From: Chlorophyllum brunneum
Lineage: Eukaryota > Basidiomycota > Agaricomycetes > Agaricales > Agaricaceae
NCBI GenBank assembly: GCA_963576785.1
Contig: OY756143.1
Coordinates: 1,178,001 to 1,242,000, forward strand
Length of the DNA stretch: 64,000 nucleotides
Direction of reading: 5' to 3'
Positions 26,364-39,580 of this stretch are shown piece after piece. Numbering within the stretch: position 1 is the stretch's first letter; each line of letters opens with the position of its first letter. A program made the position numbers and the translations under genes. The notes below the pieces were generated by a model. It saw nothing but the letters and a program-made list of their open reading frames with translations, searched no databases and was not told where the DNA came from.

Positions 26364-28282
26364 ATGGGTCTCCTAATGTCTCTTCCCATAGCCAGCGCGC
26401 TGGGCACAATAGCTTCATCATGTCTCGCTGGTGTTGCATTCTGCTTCACTTCAACTGCTGGTAACCCACCAACCATGTCTGGCTTCCAATCTTGCTCACA
26501 CGCCCGCAGCTTCCATGTTCTTTAAGTCATGTAATTGCAACTCTTCGATTGCAACTCGTATCGGATTTGCCGTGAGTAGCCACTTGTAATGACCCGTCCT
26601 ACTCTCGCTGAGCTGCGTGCTCAGATTATCTTCTCCCTGAATTCCATCCTCGCCTGGTTGATGAAGAGCGACATAATGATAAAACAGATCGAGAAATGGA
26701 GTTTTGACTATATAAAGATGGATTGCAAGGGAGATAAATGCTATGGTGTCCTTGCGGTTGGTAGCCTTCAACATTCATCATTTTCACGCTGACTTAGGAC
26801 ATGATAGGTGCATCGTATCTGCTTTGCCCTGGCCCTCCTCCATTTCCTCCTCAGCGCATCCTTGATAGGTGTTAAAGATACCCGCGACAAACGTGCTGCA
26901 ATTCAAAACGGGTAAGTATCCCCAATGATCACGAACGAATACCGTCTAAAAAACAGAGACAGTTGGTGGGGTCCGAAAGTTCTGGTTTGGCTGATCCTTG
27001 TTATCGTCTCGTTTACCATTCCCAATGGCTTCTTCATCTTCTGGGGTGACTATGTTGCATTGATAGGCGCAACCATATTCATCTTGCTCGGTCTCGTCCT
27101 CCTTGTTGACTTTGCGCACTCATGGTCGGAGACTTGCCTCGAGAATTGGGAGAATTCGCCCTCATCCAATTTATGGCAGTGGGTCCTCATCGGCTCAACT
27201 GCTTTTATGTATATCTTCACAATCACCGGTACCGGCTTGTTATACGCATATTTTGCCGGCTCGGGGTGCTCGCTGAACCGATTCTTCATCACATTCAATC
27301 TCATTCTCTGCCTTGCCATCACTATCATGTGCATCCACCCTCTTGTGCAGGAATTTAACCCTCGATCCGGTCTTGCACAATCCGCAATGGTCGCGGCCTA
27401 TTGCACCTATCTTATTCTTTCCGCCATTACCAACCATACTCACGAATCAATGTCATGCAACCCATTGCGAGATGGTTCTGGAGCTGCCCAGGGGACCCGC
27501 AAAGTTGTGGTTTTCGTTGGTGGCATTTTCACGTTCTTGGCCATTGCTTACTCAACAACACGAGCCGCAACTCAAAGTGCCCTTGTAGGCAAGAAGAAGG
27601 GTCGGATCCAACTCGACGAGGGCAGTCATTCCGAGCTGAACTATGTCACTACTCAACCTGGACGAACCGAGTCGCCGCGCTATCAGGCCTTGCTAGCTGC
27701 CGTTGAAGCTGGGTTCGTCATTTCCGCTGTTAAGCAGCCATGCATAAATTTTACTTCAATCATAGAGCGATCCCCGAATCAGCACTGTACGAGGAACAAC
27801 ATAATGATGCAGATGATGACGAGGCTCCAGGTGATGATAATGATGACGAAAAGACTGGTACCCGCTATAACGTACGTCCTCTTTCATCGACCATCAATTT
27901 ACAAATTAATTTTATTCCAGTACTCATGGTTTCACATCATCTTTTCTGGAGGTGCAATGTATGTGGCCATGCTTTTGACGGACTGGTATGTATCTACTTT
28001 CCACCGGAATCCCCGATCGCCCCATCTCACCCTGTCTCATTACATACTATAGGAACGTCGTTTCCAAACATCCTCTCGACGGCTCCGCGGACCCTAACCA
28101 GGACGTCTACATTGGCAGATCCGAAGTCGCCATGTGGATGCGCGTGGTTTCAAGCTGGGTGTGCATGGTTTTGTACATCTGGAGTCTATGGGCGCCTGTT
28201 TTTATGCCTGATCGGTGAGCTGTCCTCCCAATCTATCTATATGGAGAATGCTGACTTGTAATTTTGCAGTTTTGGCGACTAG
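26364..28282 (+). CDS. TMS1: TMS1/SERINC serine incorporator family membrane protein
   Basis: Multi-exon gene whose start has a strong context (ACCATGG). Reads MGLLMSLPIASALGTIASSC, then ASMFFKSCNCNSSIATRIGF, the hallmark CNCNSS region. Then come LNSILAWLMKSD, IEKWSFDYIKMDCKGDKCYG, ALLHFLLSASLIGVKDTRDK, RAAIQNGWWGPKVLVW, FTIPNGFFIFWGDYVALIGA, LLVDFAHSWSETCLENWE, SGCSLNRFFITFNLILCLAI, and the second half with EFNPRSGLAQSAMVAAYCTY and LILSAITNHTHESMSCNPLR. An acidic loop (QHNDADDDEAPGDDNDDEKT) precedes YSWFHIIFSGGAMYVAMLLT and the last helix VSSWVCMVLYIWSLWAPVF, ending PDRFGD. All eleven or so helices of the family are there. Yeast Tms1 and animal SERINCs are endomembrane proteins linked to lipid scrambling. 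Confidence 0.95.
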
Positions 28283-28566: not shown

Positions 28567-31500
28567 CTAGATTCGACCTGTAAGAGATGGACCCAAGAGG
28601 CTCACAAGTTTAGATCTCTCCAGTTGGGGATGAACTTGGACGGTTTTGTCGGGTGTGGTGGAGAGCGCGTAGGTGATAGTATATCTGTATATAATTAAAC
28701 AAATGCCCAGAGTCAGACCACGGCACGCTGGGCGACAGATGGCGCACCTGTTCTGTTTAAGTTTGGAGGAGTTAATGCGGTATGGAGTCTCAACGAAGCG
28801 TCCACCCGTCAAGCGCATGAGTTGCATACCTACGTCGACGCGTCAGCGCCCGGCTCCTGTGAGTGGATAATAAAAGAGTACAGACCAATTGTGCATATGA
28901 CACTTCCGGGAAAGTAAGGAATATCAACCCATTTCCCTTCTCTATTCTTCGCCTGCAATCCAGGCTGAGACTGAATCATTAGAGTAATAAAACTGTCCAT
29001 GTCATGGTGTTCATGTACTTCCTGCGAGTTATCGCTCCGGGCTTCAGGAGCGAGGGCGTGACACCATAAGCCGCATTGAAACGTAACATTGTCTTGTGGA
29101 AGATAGGAAGAGATGGCCGAGACGGGGATTTCTAAGGCATTGCAGATGTGGTCGTTCAGTGTTAAGCTCAGGGCGTGGTATTTCTCGAAAAGAAATTGTA
29201 TATTGTGCTTGAAGTTGGGGAGATCGGTTTCCGCTGGCCACTGGTTCGGACCTAACGAAATGGCTCAATGAGACACAAAGAAGGAAAGTGGCGGTCAAGT
29301 TCGGTACCTTCCTGTAGGCGCCAGTCGTCGACACTTTCGGGTACTTCTGCTCCGAAGAGATAACCTTCTGTGAGAACCTAAAAAAATTAGAATATGGAAC
29401 ACGGAGACAACGGAGGAAGTACCTTCTGGTCTGCACGGAGGTAACCTCTAAGAGCATTGGAGTTCGCGACGCTCAATGAATTCTTCCACCCTTGGGGCTT
29501 GGAGAAAATTTGGTCAGTAAGCGCAAACGTCTTCCTTTGGAAGGCTTCATCAAAACCGGGAACGTTGATTAGGACGCAGAAGCCGGTGTCCTCAAATACT
29601 TCGTGTAATTGCTTCAAGTACGTTTTTCTATCCTTATGAGAAAGAGAAAAATCGATCACGGGTCCCGTCGTTGATGGCTGGGGCTCGGTCGTGTTCAAGA
29701 GATCTGTGGCGCGAGCAAGAGTTCTACGAAGTTTCTCAGCAAATGAGACGACGTGATCTTCTGAAATTATGGTATAATGTTCTCCGTCAACGTCAACTAG
29801 CTCAAACTCTGATTGAGTAAGGCCCTTCCAGCGTGCCAGACGTTCGCTTTTATATTCTTCGCGAGAACCGAGCGAAGGAAGGGGAATGGCGCAGAAGATC
29901 GTCATGAGGGCGGGTGTGATGGAACCTTCAGCGACATAGGTGCGACCACAACGGGTGACCTGATATGCAACCCCGACCCATCTCCTGAAATCGTCCATGT
30001 TGAGTTGAAGCTCGGTCAGACGTTGTTGGTCTGACAGAGAGAAGAGATGATGAATGATCTCTGCCGATGATGGGGGCTCTGGGTCTCCTCCTTGGAGCTC
30101 AGGGAAGGCTCCGAGAACGTTTTGCTTGACCTCTTCGAAACCACTTGTTGGGATGAGAGCAAGGAAAGTGAGAAGGTTAATGAGAACCTCCAGCCAGACA
30201 AGCTCCTTCATGCGGAACTGAATCTCAGGAGGTAGGTTCAGGATACCAGTCCACGCAACCCGCTTGCCCTGGGCTTCCAACTTCTTTGTGATATCGAAAG
30301 CCACCGCCCCTCCGAAGCTGTAGCCAGCGATAAAGTAAGGTCCCTGAGGGTACGCGCTAATCAACCGAGCGGCATAGCATTCGACCATCTCTCCAAAGCT
30401 CTGAAATGGCTTATCCTTGTCATCGAAACCGCGGGCGCGCAATGCGTAAATCGGCCGATCATCAGCCAAGAGTTTGGCTAGCCCGATAAAGACAAGAATT
30501 TCTCCGACCCCTGGATGGACCAGGAACAAGGGTGGCTTCGGCCCGTAAGGGTTCAAAAGGACAAGAGGGTCGTACGGACTTTCAGTACGGCCACCGCGGA
30601 CAATAATGGTGTCAAGGAAGGTCGCAAGTTGGCTGATTTCAGGCCTCCTAAGCATTTCGATAGTTGGAATATCCGGTATACCTAAGCGGTCTTGAAGAAG
30701 CTGCTTGAGTTGCATCAAGTGCATGGATGATGCCCCAAGGTCAAAGAGACTCATAACGCGCGTTATCGTCGTTGTCGGAACGTCTAAAAGCTCGGCAATG
30801 GCCTCAAAAATGATCTCCTCTGTCCGAGTGATTTGCTCCATGGTGTCATGCTTCACGGCTTTCTCGACGTCCTTGAACTTCCGCTCAACCTCTTCGTAGG
30901 TCCCTTTGAGATAGGCCGCTGCGAGGAAGGACCGAGAAACTTTTCCGAGAGCCGTTTTAACGAATGCAGATCTGGGTAAAGGAAGGACAGTATGTGGACT
31001 CTGGGAGCAGAAAAGAAGGCAAGTCCTTTTGAGAGCGCGGTTGGTCGTTAGGATACGGGATAACTCCTCAGCAGAAAGGTCGGCCTCAATTGGAAGTTCG
31101 TGTTGGTAAAAGACAGCATAGGTCTCAGTGTCGGCGTCCGCCAGCCGCATAGGGCAGACATATACATAGGACCTGGGAACACCATCTATGCGTGAGTCCT
31201 CAATCAAGTGCTCAACGTCGGTGGTAGGGTGCTTGACTCCATTGATGTTGATGCAATCTTTATCTCTTCCCGTTAGGAAGAGGTTTCCGTCGTTGTCGAT
31301 GATGGCAGTGTCCCCTGTAATAAACCACCCATCACTAAAAGATTCCGCTGTGGCCTTAGGATTGTTGTGATATTCACGGAATACCGACGGCCCAGTGACC
31401 TGTAGCTGCCCTTCTTTGAGGGAAGGGCAAGGGAGACCAGTAATGTGATCAACCACTCGCGCGGTGACACCTTCACAGCATGCACCAAGAGAGAGATACT

Positions 31501-32713
31501 TCGAGGAGTATTGAGAAGCGTCAATCAGAATCTCGCGAGTGTCATAAATGCACCCTGCCTGTATATCGTAAGTGAGCATCAACATAACGACATCGATACC
31601 GGAACGTACACAAGTCTCCGTCATTCCGAAACCTGCGCGGAGAACATCTCTCCGAGCACCATATCGCGTGAGGATATCAGTAAACTCAACAGCAGTTCTC
31701 ACAGGGACTGCTTCTCCGCCTGAGATGAACACCTTGACCGAAGTCAAATCAAGTGGGCCGATCGGTGGGGACGCCGCGAAGTCGCGTACAATCTGTGCAA
31801 TCAGAAAGTTGGGACTGAAGGTATAGGTAATTCGATATCTATTCGTCCATTCCAGTAAATTGAGTGGAGTTCGGATGATGGCTGGGGGAGAGACGTGGTA
31901 TTGCCTATTTTCGCATGAGTTGGGATCAGGGGTAAAGTTCAATGGTTCTTACCAGGCGTCAGCCATGAGTGCCTGTAAGTGTATTTCAGATACACAGGCA
32001 ACATGATCGAAGGCGATCCAGTTTGAAAAACGAGAAGATGAATTAGAGCCGTGATGCTTGATCTTACCGCGAACGCAGGACAGGAAATTGGAATGGCGGA
32101 GACCAACAGCCTTCGAATTGCCGGTCGACCCTGACGTTAGCATGAAGCAGACAATGTCATGCGACTGCGGCTTCACTTCTGGGTATGTAGGCAGGAACCC
32201 AGCGGGTTTCCCCAGTGACTGTGTCTGCAAGTGTGACCATGAAATTGCCTCGAAGGATGGTACCAGACTTTGGACAATCAAGATTGTCTCGTCATTGCTG
32301 ATCAAGACGGGCTTGTTGAAGAGTGTATGAAGGTGGTTGAGGAAAAGGATCCGTCGGCTTTCTTCTGGGTGAAGAGTTGGAATGGGACAGAATGGTACGC
32401 CAGCTAGAACAACATGTCAATACCCCGCTCGAAGGGTTTGCATGAAAGCCTCACCAAAGCAGCAGGCCCAGAAGAGAAGGATGTGGTCATAATGATTCTC
32501 GAAACTGGCAATAACGACATTGGCCCCTTTGGGCTGGATTCCCAAAACCAAGAGACGTTGGGCGTAATCATGAGCAAGGTAGTAGAGTGTGGTATACGTA
32601 ATTGACTGTGCAATATTTCCATCGTTATTGAGGAACGATATGCCAGCAGAGGAGGTGCTCCGTTCCAGGAGTAGGTCTGGAAGGGTCTGGGGTGGAGGCG
32701 TTGCGCTGTCCAT
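28567..32713 (-). CDS. Fused NRPS-like synthetase (A-T-TE) plus 2OG-Fe(II) dioxygenase
   Basis: About 1,200 residues. The start (MDSATPPPQTLPDLLLERST) opens an adenylation domain with A3 motif LTSGSTGNSKAVGLRHSN, A5 GFGMTETC, GDTA (A7), GRDKDCININGVKHP (A8) and the A10 lysine in ALGKVSR. A thiolation domain carries the phosphopantetheine serine in FDLGASSMHLMQL (near 30720). A thioesterase follows with nucleophile GYSFGGA (near 30320) and a late histidine in DVDGEHYTII. There is no condensation domain. Without a stop or intron the frame then enters a dioxygenase domain, PVIDFSLSHKDRKTYLKQLH and FEDTGFCVLINVPGFDEAF. Later exons supply HHDMDSFITLMIQSQPGLQ (H-x-D), TIGMQLMRLTGGRFVETPYR and RYTITYALSTTPDK. 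The expected distal histidine of TPHR is tyrosine. A-T-TE enzymes dimerise aromatic 2-oxo acids (atromentin type); the substrate here is unknown. Confidence 0.88.
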
Positions 32714-33089: not shown

Positions 33090-33826
33090 CCCCATCCGAC
33101 TAGACCAGACACACTACAACATGGCCCGAGCCGCCCTTAGTCATTGCTATTCTGAAGGAGCGCTCATACAAAAATAACGACCTCGGCTGTAACTTCATGC
33201 TGCGAAACCTTCAAGAGTCGAAAAATTCCATCCAAGAGGATTTACCCAATTCCCTCGGATAGTGTCAAGTGTGGGCCGCCCCCATCGTCGTGCACCATGA
33301 CACCGAGGTACACCCTCTTTTTCGAAGTCTTTCAACTCTTGTTTCTCCATTATTAAACCAAAAGATGGACTTTGCACCAAGTGCGCAGCTATCCATAAGG
33401 ACATCTCTAATCCCTCTTAGAAGTCAAAGCCGCCACCCCCAGATTCAACCCCGACGAGATAAAGGAATATCTCGCGAAATTGAACGTCCCTTTAATGAGC
33501 ACGGCTATCTTACACATAACCGTTCCTGGTCATCGGCTAATTCGAACACCTCTGGATAGCGAAGTCGTACGTATTAAATCATCCTAGTTGAAGAAGGTCG
33601 TTTTGGCAATGTCGAACTCAAAGACCTCAATCAGAAGCTCACTCAGTCACACGAAGATCCTTTTATCCTCGTGTTATATATGAGTTCGTGAGTCTGGTTC
33701 CAAGAGTGTGATATCCTTTACTTGGGAGCTATGCTTTAGTTATACTCCACCCCAATATAAGGACATTCGGTCACTCACGCCTTGGGTTCTTCACAAGGTT
33801 GTCGTCCCATACGTTTGGCAATGAGA
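33090..33826 (+). pseudogene. Decayed hemerythrin-like (HHE) gene copy
   Basis: Pieces of a hemerythrin-like reading frame appear in order, in different frames: NDLGCNFMLRNLQESK, then SIQEDLPNSLG, a TAG stop at 33260-33262, CQVWAAPIVVHHDTE, LLNQKMDFAPSAQ, LVEEGRFGNVELKDLNQKLT, QSHEDPFILVLYM and YTPPQYKDIRSLTPWVLHKV. Each matches the intact minus-strand gene at 38712-39580, where the stop position reads TAT (tyrosine) in GYCQAW. At least two frameshifts and the stop break it, and the C-terminus ends about ten residues early. It forms the outer end of the plus-strand arm of an inverted duplication. Coordinates are approximate. Confidence 0.8.
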
Positions 33827-34223
33827 TATTTTGAGTGAGCGAATGTCAGACGATGCAATCGGAGTGACGTTGACCTCAAGACCTGAACAGGTACTGGAAG
33901 CATTTTCACCATACTTAATCCCATAAAACTATATTCGCATCCCATCTTCTGATCAAGAGCCTCATACTATGTGATCATGCTTAATTGTGGTTCAGATCGG
34001 CCCACTGCTCTGGTTTATTGAATTACTGAATTTGATGACATTTTCCCCTTTCGAAAGTGCCTGTTCAACAGACCTTATCGGCCCCCTACCACATGGATCC
34101 ACAGATTAAATCCCGATTGTGCGTCTCATGACGATGTTCGAAAGGAGTCATGTTGCACAACAGTAACTTTTTAACCGACGCTTTGAGGTCACAGAACGTA
34201 TTCAACCCCCCACCGTTCCGCCC

Positions 34224-35759
34224 ATGGATAAGACGCCCATCCTCGTCGCATCGCAGCTCCTTGAGTTGGTCAAGGAAACTTATGGGAATCCGCAACCATC
34301 ACCCTTCGAAATCTATGATAAGAAATACCAGATCGAGGATCTTTGTGGCAAGCTATTACGGTCCGTTTTAGGACCCTTGGAGTATACCGCCTTGTTGGCT
34401 GGTGAGTGTGTGTATCATAGGCTTTGTCCTGAACGCTCGAACGCTCTCCTCGCCGCCCGATCAAGAGTCTTGCCAGGAGAGCTCAGCACTCGGTTTCGTC
34501 ACCAGACTGGGTGTGCCAGATCTTCTCGGAGATGAAACGATGAGTGTTCCAGAAATTTCCGATGCTCTTGGTATTCGAGCAAAATATTTGAGTGAGTTTG
34601 ATTTTGTGGCGCCCGATTCTGATCCTCGCTAACAGGCCTTCAGAAGTTGCCCTGAGCTGTTTGACCAAACACGGATATTTCGATGAAGCTACTTCCACAG
34701 GTTTCGCAGTATATCGTAACAACGAGCTGTCAAACATTCTTAAGGAAACCCACCCGACTAGCCTCAAGGACGCGGTTGGCTTCATGTAAGCACTCTCAAT
34801 GAGTTGACTTTGGGTGATTGACGAGCATGGTCTTGGTGGGTCGACTTTTGAATCGATCAGATGTGATGAAGGATTTCAAGCGACCTCGCATCTTGTACCA
34901 GCGTCGAAGATAATGTCATCTAGAGAGTCGCAGGTCAAAGATATTCCGGCAATAAACTTGGCCTTTGGCTTTAACCAAACTGTCTTTGAGTGGATGTCAC
35001 AAGAAGCATGGCGAGGAAAACGGATGGGGAACGCTATGCAACAGTTGCACCGAATGGCTAACGCAAACGTTATATTCGGTACGTGTTGACCTCGAAACCG
35101 TAACCCAGCTGACTTTGCCGTGCTTTAGATTATGATTGGTCTGCGTTAAACTCACCTATTGTCGATGTCGGAGGAGGGATCGGTTCTCTGGAACTAGCTT
35201 TGGTCAAGAATCGTCCAGGGGACCGATTCCAGTTTGTCAATTTTGACCTGCCAGAAGTCATCGAGAATTCCCAAAAGGTAAACCCAGTGACGTGAACTGT
35301 GCCAAGCTTCACGCTCAGAACTTTTGTTTCAAGGTGTGGAAATCGCAATCCTTGCCAGACCATTCCTCAATCACATTCCAAGCTGGAGACCTCATGGCAC
35401 CTGCATTTGAAGAAACATTTCTACCAGCTGGAAAACCTACCTATGTCATCCGTCATGTCCTCCATGATTGGTCAGATGCAGGTGTCCTACACATCCTGAA
35501 ACATATCTTCACAGCCATGTCGACCCGTCCTGTTGATAACTCGGTGGCACGGCCAAAGCTCATCCTGTGTGAAATGCTGCTGCGACCCGACAGTCACAGG
35601 TTCATCAGGACTACGAGCATGCAACTGCTGTCCTTGAATGGCGGTCAGGCGCGCACTGAAGCTGAAATAACACAGTTATTGGAGAAGGCTGGGTTCTCTG
35701 TCGTTAAGACGTACAATATGAGAGCTGCAGATAGTGTAATCGAGGCAATAATACCCTAG
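34224..35759 (+). CDS. SAM-dependent O-methyltransferase, plant COMT-like fold
   Basis: Multi-exon gene of roughly 400 residues. It starts MDKTPILVASQLLELVKETY; the dimerisation domain follows with YQIEDLCGKLLRSVLGPLEY, ESCQESSALGFVTRLGVPDL and VALSCLTKHGYFDEATSTGF. Then EAWRGKRMGNAMQQLHRMAN precedes the catalytic domain. The SAM-binding motif is IVDVGGGIGSLELAL (near 35159-35200), followed by VNFDLPEVIENSQK. The catalytic base region reads YVIRHVLHDWSD, the His-Asp pair expected of O-methyltransferases. LILCEMLLRPD and a last helix with ARTEAEITQLLEKAGFSVVK complete it. No broken exon was found. It is the inner gene of the plus-strand arm of an inverted duplication and is closely similar to the gene at 36847-38394. 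The acceptor is probably a phenolic or quinone hydroxyl; this is inference from fold. Confidence 0.9.
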
Positions 35760-36846: not shown

Positions 36847-38394
36847 CTATCCCTGCTTATAATTTAGGGTGGCCTCAATAACGGTGTCATCGGCTCGCAT
36901 CCGATGGGATCTGGTGGATGAGAACCCAGCCGCCTCCAGCAACAGAATCAAATCCGCTTCAGTACGAGTCCAACCAGTACTCATGGCCATAATTTGCATA
37001 CTTGCTGCTCGAATGAATCGGTTGCTATTCGGGAGAAGCAAAGCTTCGCACAGGATGAGTTGTGGTCGAATCAAAGGATCTTCAGCAATATGCAAGGACA
37101 TGGCGGTCCGGACATGTTTCAAGATGTGCAATACCTCGTCATCTGACCAGTTGTGAAGAACGTGCCGAATGATGTAGGTTGCTCTCCCAGCCGGAAGAGA
37201 GGTTTCCTCGAAAGTTGTAGCCATGAAGTCCCCGGCTTGGAATGAGACGGAGAACGTCTCTGGCGCAGATAGCTCCTTCCACATCTAGTATGAGGCCGTT
37301 GAGCTACTTGTCTGGATACCTGTGACGAAGGTGTGATAGTGGGTTACCTTCTTTCCATTTTCTATAGTCTCGGCAGTGTCGAAGATAATGAACTGAAATG
37401 GATCTTGGGGCCGGTTTCTAAGGAGTATCATTTCCAAGGAACCAATGCCTCCTCCAACGTCCACGATAGGGGAAGCCAACGCCGACCAGTCGTAATCTAT
37501 CTCCGAAGGATTTCAATAGAGCGGAAGACACGTAAAGAAATCTTACCAAAAGCAGTGTTTTCGTTAGCCGTCCGGTGTAATTGCTGCATGGCACTTCCCA
37601 TCCTCTTCCCTCGCCAGGGCTCTTGTGCTAACCAGTCAAACACGGATTCCTTGAAATCAAACGCTAGATTTATAGCTGCAACTTCTTTTCCCTGGGAGCT
37701 CTTCGGGTAAGTGACCTTTGAAGCTGGCAACAGGTATGAAGAAGCCTTGAAGCCATCATCACACCTACCAGGCGACATGCGACAATTCCGTCAGTTTTCT
37801 TCGGGATATGACGAAGGGACTTACATGAAGCCGACTGCATCCTTGAGGGTAGTTGGATGGTCGGCTTTAAGTACGCTTGAAAAGACATTGTTGCGGTAGG
37901 CCAGTAAGCTCGAACCGGCATTGATTTCGTCGAAGTATCCGTGTTTTGTTATGCAGCTCAATGCGACCTCTATGCGGTTCGCGCTGAATTCGACGAGCAA
38001 ATGAACGGGGCGGCGCAGCACTTACTCAGGTATTTCGTTTTCACGCCGAGTGCGTCAGATATCTCTTGGACCGTCATCGTTCTTTCTCCCAGGAACTCGG
38101 CAACTCCGAGCTCTGTGACGAAACCAAGGGCAGAGCTTTCCTGACATGATTCTTGTGTCCTATGAACGGTAAGATCACGGCAACGGACGACGGGGGCTTA
38201 CCTGCGAGTAGGCTTGTATATTCCAGGGGGCCGAGTACAGTACGTAGAAGTTGGCCGCAGAGGTCTTCGATTTGATATTTGGTTTCATAGGTCTCAAAGC
38301 GGGTGAGTTGCAAGCTGTCTGAGATATCTGTAGGGGTGTATGATTTGACAAGCTCCAGCAATTGTTCCGCCAGGAGGATGGGGTTCGGATCCAT
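36847..38394 (-). CDS. SAM-dependent O-methyltransferase, second copy
   Basis: Close relative of the gene at 34224-35759, on the opposite strand. Reads MDPNPILLAEQLLELVKSYT, YQIEDLCGQLLRTVLGPLEY, VALSCITKHGYFDE, LLAYRNNVFSSVLKADHPTT, CDDGFKASSYLLPASKV and EPWRGKRMGSAMQQLHRTAN. The SAM motif is IVDVGGGIGSLEMILLRNRP. The catalytic segment reads IIRHVLHNWSDDEV: the histidine is kept but the following aspartate of LHDW is asparagine. The end is TRTEADLILLLEAAGFSSTR and MRADDTVIEATLNYKQG. Exon borders match the first copy. The gene appears intact. Copies differ at many positions, so they may have different substrates. Confidence 0.9.
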
Positions 38395-38711
38395 TGAAAA
38401 GGTAGGGTGTTGTATACTCCGCGTGCGTTTTGGTGGTAGCCCCGCTGATTACCTAGCGCCTAATGTAGGGGGAAAAAGCCAGATTGCGGACGATTGACCA
38501 TGACTATGTGGGTTGTTCAGGTACCCCTTGCCGTTTAAGGATATCATGTCGCTACTTCCATCAATTTGAGTAAAAATAAAAAAACTGGTACGATAGATAA
38601 ATACAGCATCGGAACAGAAACCACAGCCCTGAGTAGTCATGAGTGCTCACGAAACTGAATAAGGTGCGTATTTCCAGTACCTGCATCGTTTCGTTAGTTA
38701 GGGCTAAGTCA

Positions 38712-39580
38712 TCATTGGTCAACGAAAACGTACGCTGAGTGCCTCCTTGCAAGAACGTATGGAATGACTATCTTACGAAGAATCCATGGCATCGGAGGCC
38801 AAATATCTTTGAACTCCGGGGGTGTATGTCTGGGGCAACGAATAGGTCAGTAGGTAATTGAACCATGGAGGAGAGAAGACCAACGATCTCATGTACGGAA
38901 CAAGGACAAAGGGGTCGCCATGGGACTGAGCAAACTTGTCAAGTCGTTTGTTGAGTTCCCTGAGTTCAGCCTCGCCAAAGCCAGCTTCCTTCAGCTCTGA
39001 CGAGTTGATATGCTCAACCTCACTGTCCAGATGCTCAAACTAACTGAGGATTAGTACTGGCTCTACACACAGTGGCTTCAGTTTACCAATGGGTCTTTCA
39101 ACTTAACGAGATGCTCCTTAATGTCGTCGGGGCTAAACTTGGAGGGATCGGCCTTGGCTTCTAACAGAATGGCCTCGAAATCGGAGATGCCTTCGTGGAT
39201 GGCTTCGTGGGCCCCTTTCTCGGGACCAAAGTCCATCTTCTGGTTCAGGACTGGGAAAACAATTTCTTCCTGGAATCGAGGTGTGAGATGGGTCGCTTTT
39301 TTGCCGTTCAAACTTTACCTCGCTGTCGTGGTGTACGACGATTGAAGTGGCCCATGCTTGACAATAGCCCAAAAAATTGGGCACATCGTTGTGAATCGTG
39401 TCCTTTGACTCCTCGAGGTTTTTCAGAATAATGTTATAGCCAAGTTTGAACGTGTGGTGGGCTGTTACAGTCGTTAGAATAAGCGTCATGTCTACAGAGT
39501 TGCGGCGTACCTCGAACCATGTTGTAATGTAACTGCTCGAAAGGATCGGTTGGAAAAGGCATGTTTGTCACTGGGGACAT
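38712..39580 (-). CDS. Hemerythrin-like HHE domain protein
   Basis: Reads MSPVTNMPFPTDPFEQLHYN, then MVRAHHTFKLGYNIILKNLE, DVPNFLGYCQAWATSIVVHH, DSEEEIVFPVLNQKMDFGPE, AHEAIHEGISDFEAILLEAK and LFEHLDSEVEHINSSELKEA. The histidines and acids of a hemerythrin four-helix bundle (H in AHH, HHDSEEE, IHEGI, HLDSE) are in place, so it should bind a non-haem di-iron or other metal centre. The C-terminus RSHTPPEFKDIWPPMPWILR ends in VFVDQ. About four introns. The family is common in Agaricomycetes near oxygen-handling genes and is poorly characterised; an oxygen or nitric oxide sensing or iron-storing role is inference. The broken plus-strand copy at 33090-33826 is its duplicate. Confidence 0.85.

What the first reader, a model, noticed from the sequence alone, without database searches (positions are those of the whole stretch)
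28567..32713. Synthetase and dioxygenase fused in one polypeptide (A-T-TE-2OGDO)
Seen: one reading frame runs through the last adenylation motif, the GASSM thiolation serine, the GYSFGGA thioesterase and, after about 20 linker residues, into an isopenicillin-N-synthase-like dioxygenase (PVIDFSLSHKDRKTYLK) with no stop or intron between. Known: stand-alone A-T-TE enzymes of basidiomycetes make atromentin-type quinones from aromatic 2-oxo acids, and tailoring oxidation is normally separate. Inference: the fusion hands a thioesterase-released or bound product directly to an oxidative step. I am not aware of this domain order being characterised.
Basis: partly seen in the sequence, partly recalled or inferred. 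Interest (0 to 1): 0.88.

Follow-up and report, generated by a model that had tools for sequence, protein, structure and literature searches.

The report
Quinone synthetase with decayed dioxygenase tail
A mushroom gene really does join a pigment-making enzyme to an oxygenase-like tail in one protein, but this domain order was already described in a magic mushroom, and here the tail has lost one of the residues that should hold its iron, so it probably no longer oxidises anything.

Summary
A minus-strand gene (32713 to 28567; 8 exons, 1258 aa in my model) reads A-T-TE-dioxygenase (D), and the TE-D junction lies inside one 2136-nt exon. The domain order is not new: Psilocybe cubensis PpaA1 (Seibold 2023, PMC10316625) is an A-T-TE-D polyporic acid synthetase whose D can be deleted without effect in Aspergillus. 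The same D is present in 45 of the 74 best database relatives I scanned.

Its D keeps His-x-Asp, but the distal iron-binding His is Tyr. All 6 sequences of this ortholog group that reach the site share that change. In 30 full-length D domains of other lineages the triad is intact in 29; one has a gene-model gap there. In those lineages D evolves slower than A-T-TE (ratio 0.59); in this group, faster (2.62).

Most likely: a polyporic-acid-type terphenylquinone synthetase whose inherited D tail has become a pseudoenzyme. By-product: D appears ancestral to the clade, repeatedly lost or split off (CorA and HapA1 lack it), and constrained elsewhere as if catalytic.

The parts
28567..32713 (-). whole gene, A-T-TE-D, 8 exons, 1258 aa (inferred model)
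32455..32713 (-). exon 1, start of A domain
31953..32403 (-). exon 2, A domain (LTSGSTGNSK motif; FDHVACVSE with the Val taken as code position 1)
31610..31904 (-). exon 3, A domain, code position 5 = Ile297 (codon 31726-31724)
31559..31609 (-). in-frame, stop-free 51-nt intron in the A domain, missed by a plain reading-frame view
   Evidence: (consensus lacks the 17 residues)
29423..31558 (-). exon 4: rest of A, T (Ser613), TE (Ser749, His929), linker, start of D; the TE-D junction is in this one exon
29308..29377 (-). exon 5, D domain
28886..29251 (-). exon 6, D domain with His1152-His-Asp1154 (codons 29009-29007 and 29003-29001)
28748..28829 (-). exon 7, D domain; Tyr1209 (codon TAC 28782-28780) where relatives have the distal iron-binding His
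28567..28684 (-). exon 8, end of D (conserved Arg1220 is split over the 7/8 junction); lacks the roughly 50-residue tail of other lineages

Best explanation
The gene encodes a clade-I-type (polyporic acid type) quinone synthetase. The A domain activates an aromatic 2-oxo acid, most likely phenylpyruvate; the T domain carries it; the TE domain joins two units to a terphenylquinone such as polyporic acid. The C-terminal dioxygenase is inherited from an A-T-TE-D ancestor, but in the ortholog group of the window, Leucocoprinus and Agaricus it has lost the distal iron-binding His (to Tyr), a segment after the RGY motif and the C-terminal tail, and evolves fast; it is most likely a non-catalytic pseudoenzyme tail. 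Shown by computation: domain order, residues, relationship, rate shift. Inferred: substrate, product, loss of catalysis.
For: Domains in one frame. Nearest characterised relatives are polyporic acid synthetases: HapA1 (P0040, 55%) and CorA (P0046, 53%), and they fall in the same ingroup in the tree. The motif FDHVACVSE and the FISGGE Ile are the same in window, HapA1 and CorA; PMC10316625 ties Ile/Val at code position 5 to phenylpyruvate and Val at position 1 to 2-oxo acids. Nearest solved A-domain sequences are 6ulx/6ulw and 4r0m (McyG), E 1e-56 to 1e-55; that these select 2-oxo acid or phenylpropanoid substrates is recalled. T Ser, TE Ser and TE His are present. D: HxD kept, distal His is Tyr in 6 of 6 group members that reach the site (window, P0001, P0002, P0003, metagenomic P0146, P0147), the first His also Tyr in 4 of 7 that reach it. 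D/A-T-TE branch-length ratio 2.62 over 7 branches of the group against 0.59 over 58 other branches. PpaA1 without D still makes polyporic acid.
Against: No expression, product or enzyme data. D is still in frame, still over the Pfam cut-offs, and its members remain 53-78% identical to each other, so it is not free of constraint. Asp, the Arg-x-Thr pair and the RGY and GPNQWP motifs are kept in the 4 full-length members. No clade II atromentin synthetase was in my tree, so exclusion from clade II rests on the code residue and the nearest hits.
Confidence: 0.74

Rival explanations
1. D is an active oxygenase that uses His-Asp-Tyr (or other ligands) and modifies the quinone made by TE.
For: Asp and Arg-x-Thr are kept, and a group-specific pattern [HY]-H-D-[ML]-D-[SG]-F replaces HRDPSTF in all 7 members that reach it, which looks like renewed constraint. 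Two O-methyltransferase genes lie nearby, so tailoring is plausible.
Against: The distal His is absent in 6 of 6 members that reach the site and the proximal His is Tyr in 4 of 7; the other 2OG enzymes aligned have His at that site (five alignments shown). D of PpaA1, with an intact motif, showed no role in Aspergillus.
Confidence: 0.1
2. D is a structural or regulatory part that supports folding, dimer contacts or product control of A-T-TE.
For: The tail has stayed in frame in at least three named genera with full-length D plus the window (Leucocoprinus, Agaricus; Macrolepiota only in part) although catalytic residues are lost.
Against: PpaA1 stays active without D, and swapping or adding D did not change CorA or PpaA1. 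CorA and HapA1 work without it. My AlphaFold models of whole relatives were of low overall confidence (pTM 0.40 and 0.39), so they say nothing on domain contacts.
Confidence: 0.12
3. Two genes that only look fused (mis-assembly, frameshift or missed transcript end).
Against: One uninterrupted exon spans the junction and relatives from other assemblies have the same continuous protein.
Confidence: 0.03

Closest known systems
PpaA1 / PpaA2, Psilocybe cubensis (PMC10316625)
   Same: Order A-T-TE-D, similar length (1333 and 1326 aa), 8 to 9 introns, polyporic-acid-type code residue class, D without shown catalytic role.
   Different: PpaA1 keeps the HxD...H iron motif (His1186, Asp1188, His1243); the window has Tyr at the distal site and lacks the C-terminal tail seen in other lineages. 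PpaA1 itself was not among the 120 listed hits, so it was compared through the paper only.
HapA1 (Hapalopilus rutilans) and CorA (Terana caerulea), polyporic acid synthetases
   Same: A-T-TE, 55% and 53% identity over 76% of the query, same FDHVACVSE and FISGGE motifs.
   Different: They have no D domain.
Basidiomycete atromentin synthetases (NPS3 and others, clade II)
   Same: A-T-TE and the same reaction logic (paper).
   Different: Code position 5 is Asn there, Ile here; no D reported in the passages seen.
Fungal 2OG-Fe(II) dioxygenases with solved structures (thymine dioxygenase 5c3o/5c3p, TropC 6xjj, SpoC 9l52, TraH 9ig3)
   Same: Same fold family by sequence (E 2.5e-11 to 2.7e-6).
   Different: Separate enzymes; the four bearing alignments shown besides SpoC and SpoC itself have His where the window has Tyr.

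Membership tests
Clade I quinone (polyporic acid) synthetase | A-T-TE tri-domain with intact T serine and TE serine/histidine | tested here: met
Clade I quinone (polyporic acid) synthetase | Code position 1 Val and position 5 Ile/Val | tested here: met
   FDHVACVSE and FISGGE as in HapA1 and CorA; the positions were assigned by motif, not by a GrsA alignment of my own
Clade I quinone (polyporic acid) synthetase | Groups with CorA and HapA1 rather than with clade II | tested here: inconclusive
   Groups with them against ascomycete and bacterial outgroups; no clade II row was in the tree
Clade I quinone (polyporic acid) synthetase | Makes polyporic acid from phenylpyruvate | not testable with these tools
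   needs expression and LC-MS
PpaA1-type A-T-TE-D synthetase | C-terminal DIOX_N plus 2OG-FeII_Oxy in the same polypeptide | tested here: met
PpaA1-type A-T-TE-D synthetase | HxD(x)nH iron motif retained in D | tested here: not met
   HxD present, distal His is Tyr1209
Active 2OG-Fe(II) dioxygenase | Full 2-His-1-carboxylate triad | tested here: not met
Active 2OG-Fe(II) dioxygenase | Arg (Arg-x-Ser/Thr) for the 2-oxoglutarate carboxylate | tested here: met
   Arg1220 and Thr
Atromentin synthetase (clade II) | Asn at code position 5 | tested here: not met
   Ile297

The most novel reading that the evidence does not exclude
The dioxygenase domain is a genuine, ancestral catalytic partner of polyporic acid synthetases, acting in cis when fused and in trans when split off, on a substrate that Aspergillus assays do not reveal; in the window's ortholog group the site was not simply lost but rebuilt (His/Tyr-His-Asp-x-Asp with distal Tyr) into a new ligand- or metal-binding site.
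Probability: 0.1. Interest if true: 0.65.

Novelty: new variant of a known kind. Interest (0 to 1): 0.42.

Why it matters
The published PpaA1 work calls its dioxygenase tail unique and inactive. The comparison here suggests that the tail is widespread and old, that in lineages with an intact iron motif it is the most conserved domain of the protein, and that one mushroom group, including the button mushroom, has lost the motif while keeping the tail. That makes the tail's role testable: compare intact, decayed and absent versions of one enzyme family.

Tried and rejected
Exon 3/4 was first read as one exon; alignment to relatives showed 17 extra residues, now an intron. The early runs used the 1275-aa version or pieces of it.

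A first tree counted P0057, P0062, P0052 and P0060 as D-less. Their C-termini show a linker or the start of D in P0057 and P0062, and doubtful models in P0052 and P0060. In one search I recoded the first two as D+ and dropped the last two and outgroup row P0082; the count of changes in label D+ fell from 11 to 9.

Looked for a second A-T-TE-D, or a separate intact D, in the window's genome: none found at the sensitivity of exon-wise search; other A-domain and dioxygenase genes are distant.

AlphaFold models of P0003 and P0030 had low pTM (0.40, 0.39); I draw nothing on domain contacts from them. No fold search was run.

Whether AlfB of allantofuranone synthesis is a parallel: it is an aromatic ring-cleavage (extradiol type) dioxygenase, not this family (passages).

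dN/dS was not possible: no DNA of the eukaryote relatives could be fetched.

Full report
OBSERVATION. The window is from an unnamed 38.9 Mb, 14-contig genome. On the minus strand an open frame of 853 aa (29387-31948) spans the end of an adenylation domain, thiolation domain, thioesterase and the start of a dioxygenase. Splicing by GT/AG and alignment to relatives gives 8 exons from ATG 32713 to the stop at 28567, 1258 aa. An earlier 7-exon, 1275-aa version contained a stop-free 51-nt intron in the A domain; early searches used it. Pfam finds, in order and over cut-off, AMP-binding, PP-binding, Thioesterase, DIOX_N and 2OG-FeII_Oxy.

ALREADY CHARACTERISED ORDER. A search on four terms returned four papers holding at least two of them; one describes this architecture, and two further searches added no other with this order in the listings. 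In Seibold et al. 2023 (PMC10316625; I saw the abstract, passages, and sections 5 and 10) PpaA1 and PpaA2 of Psilocybe cubensis are A-T-TE-D; PpaA1 makes polyporic acid in Aspergillus, PpaA2 gave no product. Mutating the iron motif or deleting D left polyporic acid and phlebiopsins in place, the host alone made phlebiopsins from added polyporic acid, and adding D to CorA changed nothing. The paper calls PpaA1 unique and its D catalytically inactive.

RELATIVES. The protein search scored 1291 proteins, of which the best 120 were listed. Of the best 74, D matched in 45. Named sources include Leucocoprinus, Agaricus, Macrolepiota, Hypsizygus, Lyophyllum, Collybia, Mycena, Trametes, Phanerochaete, Gloeophyllum and Punctularia. 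The closest complete relatives are Agaricaceae: P0001 72%, P0002 70%, P0003 Agaricus bisporus 73% over 86%. PpaA1 itself was not in the listed hits.

ACTIVE SITE. Aligned D domains show HEHRDPST ... ATxHRVN in other lineages. In the 30 full-length D domains outside the window's group, 29 have His, Asp and His; the thirtieth (P0016) has a gap in its gene model over HxD. Two further partial ones show His and Asp but end before the distal site. The window has HEHHDMDSF and, at the distal site, TPYRI: Tyr1209, codon TAC at 28782-28780. The group splits thus: distal Tyr in 6 of 6 that reach it (window, P0001, P0002, P0003, P0146, P0147); first His kept in 3 of 7 (window, P0146, P0147) and Tyr in 4 of 7 (P0001, P0002, P0003, P0148). 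P0146-P0148 are unnamed metagenome proteins placed in the group by similarity only. P0004 and P0018 stop before the site. All four full-length members also lack a segment after RGY and a C-terminal tail of about 50 residues. The Arg-x-Thr pair and Asp are kept.

RATES. Among 435 pairs of the 30 other proteins, D identity exceeds A-T-TE identity in 434; taken per domain, mean identities are A 0.574, T 0.511, TE 0.618, D 0.730. Within the four group members the order reverses: A 0.803 (3 pairs), T 0.766, TE 0.799, D 0.599 (6 pairs). On one fixed topology, D/A-T-TE branch length is 0.59 over 58 other branches and 2.62 over the 7 group branches; two other branches are also high (P0020, P0045), the second possibly a gene-model effect. 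Of 159 D columns conserved in other lineages the window keeps 92, with 23 gapped. So D was strongly constrained where the triad is intact and is relaxed or re-targeted here, though not free.

ORIGIN OF THE TAIL. In a tree of A-T-TE parts (55 ingroup and 4 outgroup rows) D-bearing rows do not form one clade (AU p 0.00014). The D label needs 9 changes, with 7 forced by starred branches. D-bearing rows sit on both sides of the deepest ingroup fork, and CorA and HapA1 (no D) nest inside. The D tree recovers the main groups: Lyophyllaceae-type, Mycena with Punctularia, Trametes with Cubamyces, and the window's group. The simplest reading is one old fusion followed by repeated loss or splitting. Cautions: the direction is inferred, deep supports are weak (46/87 at the first fork), and most 'no D' states are gene models; only CorA and HapA1 rest on experiment. 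A search with an intact D found stand-alone copies, and the 8 inspected have the intact motif. Trametes polyzona P0121 shares its contig length with the D-less P0044, and Cubamyces menziesii P0127 with P0053, as expected for split partners; adjacency was not seen. The paper states that Phlebiopsis gigantea synthetases are canonical A-T-TE; database protein P0031 of that species carries the start of D and then runs off, apparently into an intron.

AGAINST A SIMPLE 'AGARICACEAE LOST D' STORY. Leucocoprinus birnbaumii also has P0124, whose D is 71% identical to the intact query and has the intact motif, in a model joined to kinase-like sequence; Leucoagaricus P0062 carries the start of such a D. 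So a second, intact lineage exists in the family. The window's genome shows no second A-T-TE of this type and no intact D.

SUBSTRATE. The motifs FDHVACVSE and FISGGE are the same in window, HapA1 and CorA. In the paper Val at code position 1 marks 2-oxo acids and Ile/Val at position 5 marks phenylpyruvate, Asn marks 4-hydroxyphenylpyruvate. I assigned positions by motif; the paper's CorA residue number (298) does not match the numbering of P0046, where the Ile is at 330.

NEIGHBOURHOOD. Downstream, tail to tail, is a Serinc gene (26916-28049). Upstream are two O-methyltransferase genes facing each other, with Pfam Methyltransf_2 in 35247-35756 (+) and 36850-37284 (-). They could methylate the quinone; this is inference. 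No aminotransferase was looked for exhaustively.

VERDICT. The fusion is real and of a known kind. The new part is the decayed iron site in this group and the evidence that the same domain is constrained elsewhere.

Noticed in passing
window 33339-34790 and 37820-39262: Diverged inverted duplication (four arm pairs, 73-81% complementary) that covers an O-methyltransferase gene and a flanking stretch; the copy at 33.2-33.5 kb looks broken.
   Followed up: partly
window 34226-35759 (+) and 36847-38386 (-): Two O-methyltransferase genes (Methyltransf_2) next to the synthetase, candidates for tailoring a quinone; starts read by eye.
   Followed up: partly
P0031 (Phlebiopsis gigantea), residues 970-1080: Carries the start of the D domain, although PMC10316625 describes this species' synthetases as canonical A-T-TE.
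   Followed up: partly
P0121-P0128: Stand-alone proteins that match D at 60-73% identity with intact iron motif; some share contig length with a D-less synthetase.
   Followed up: partly
P0124 (Leucocoprinus birnbaumii): Gene model joins kinase-like sequence to an intact D domain; likely a model error, not examined.
   Followed up: no
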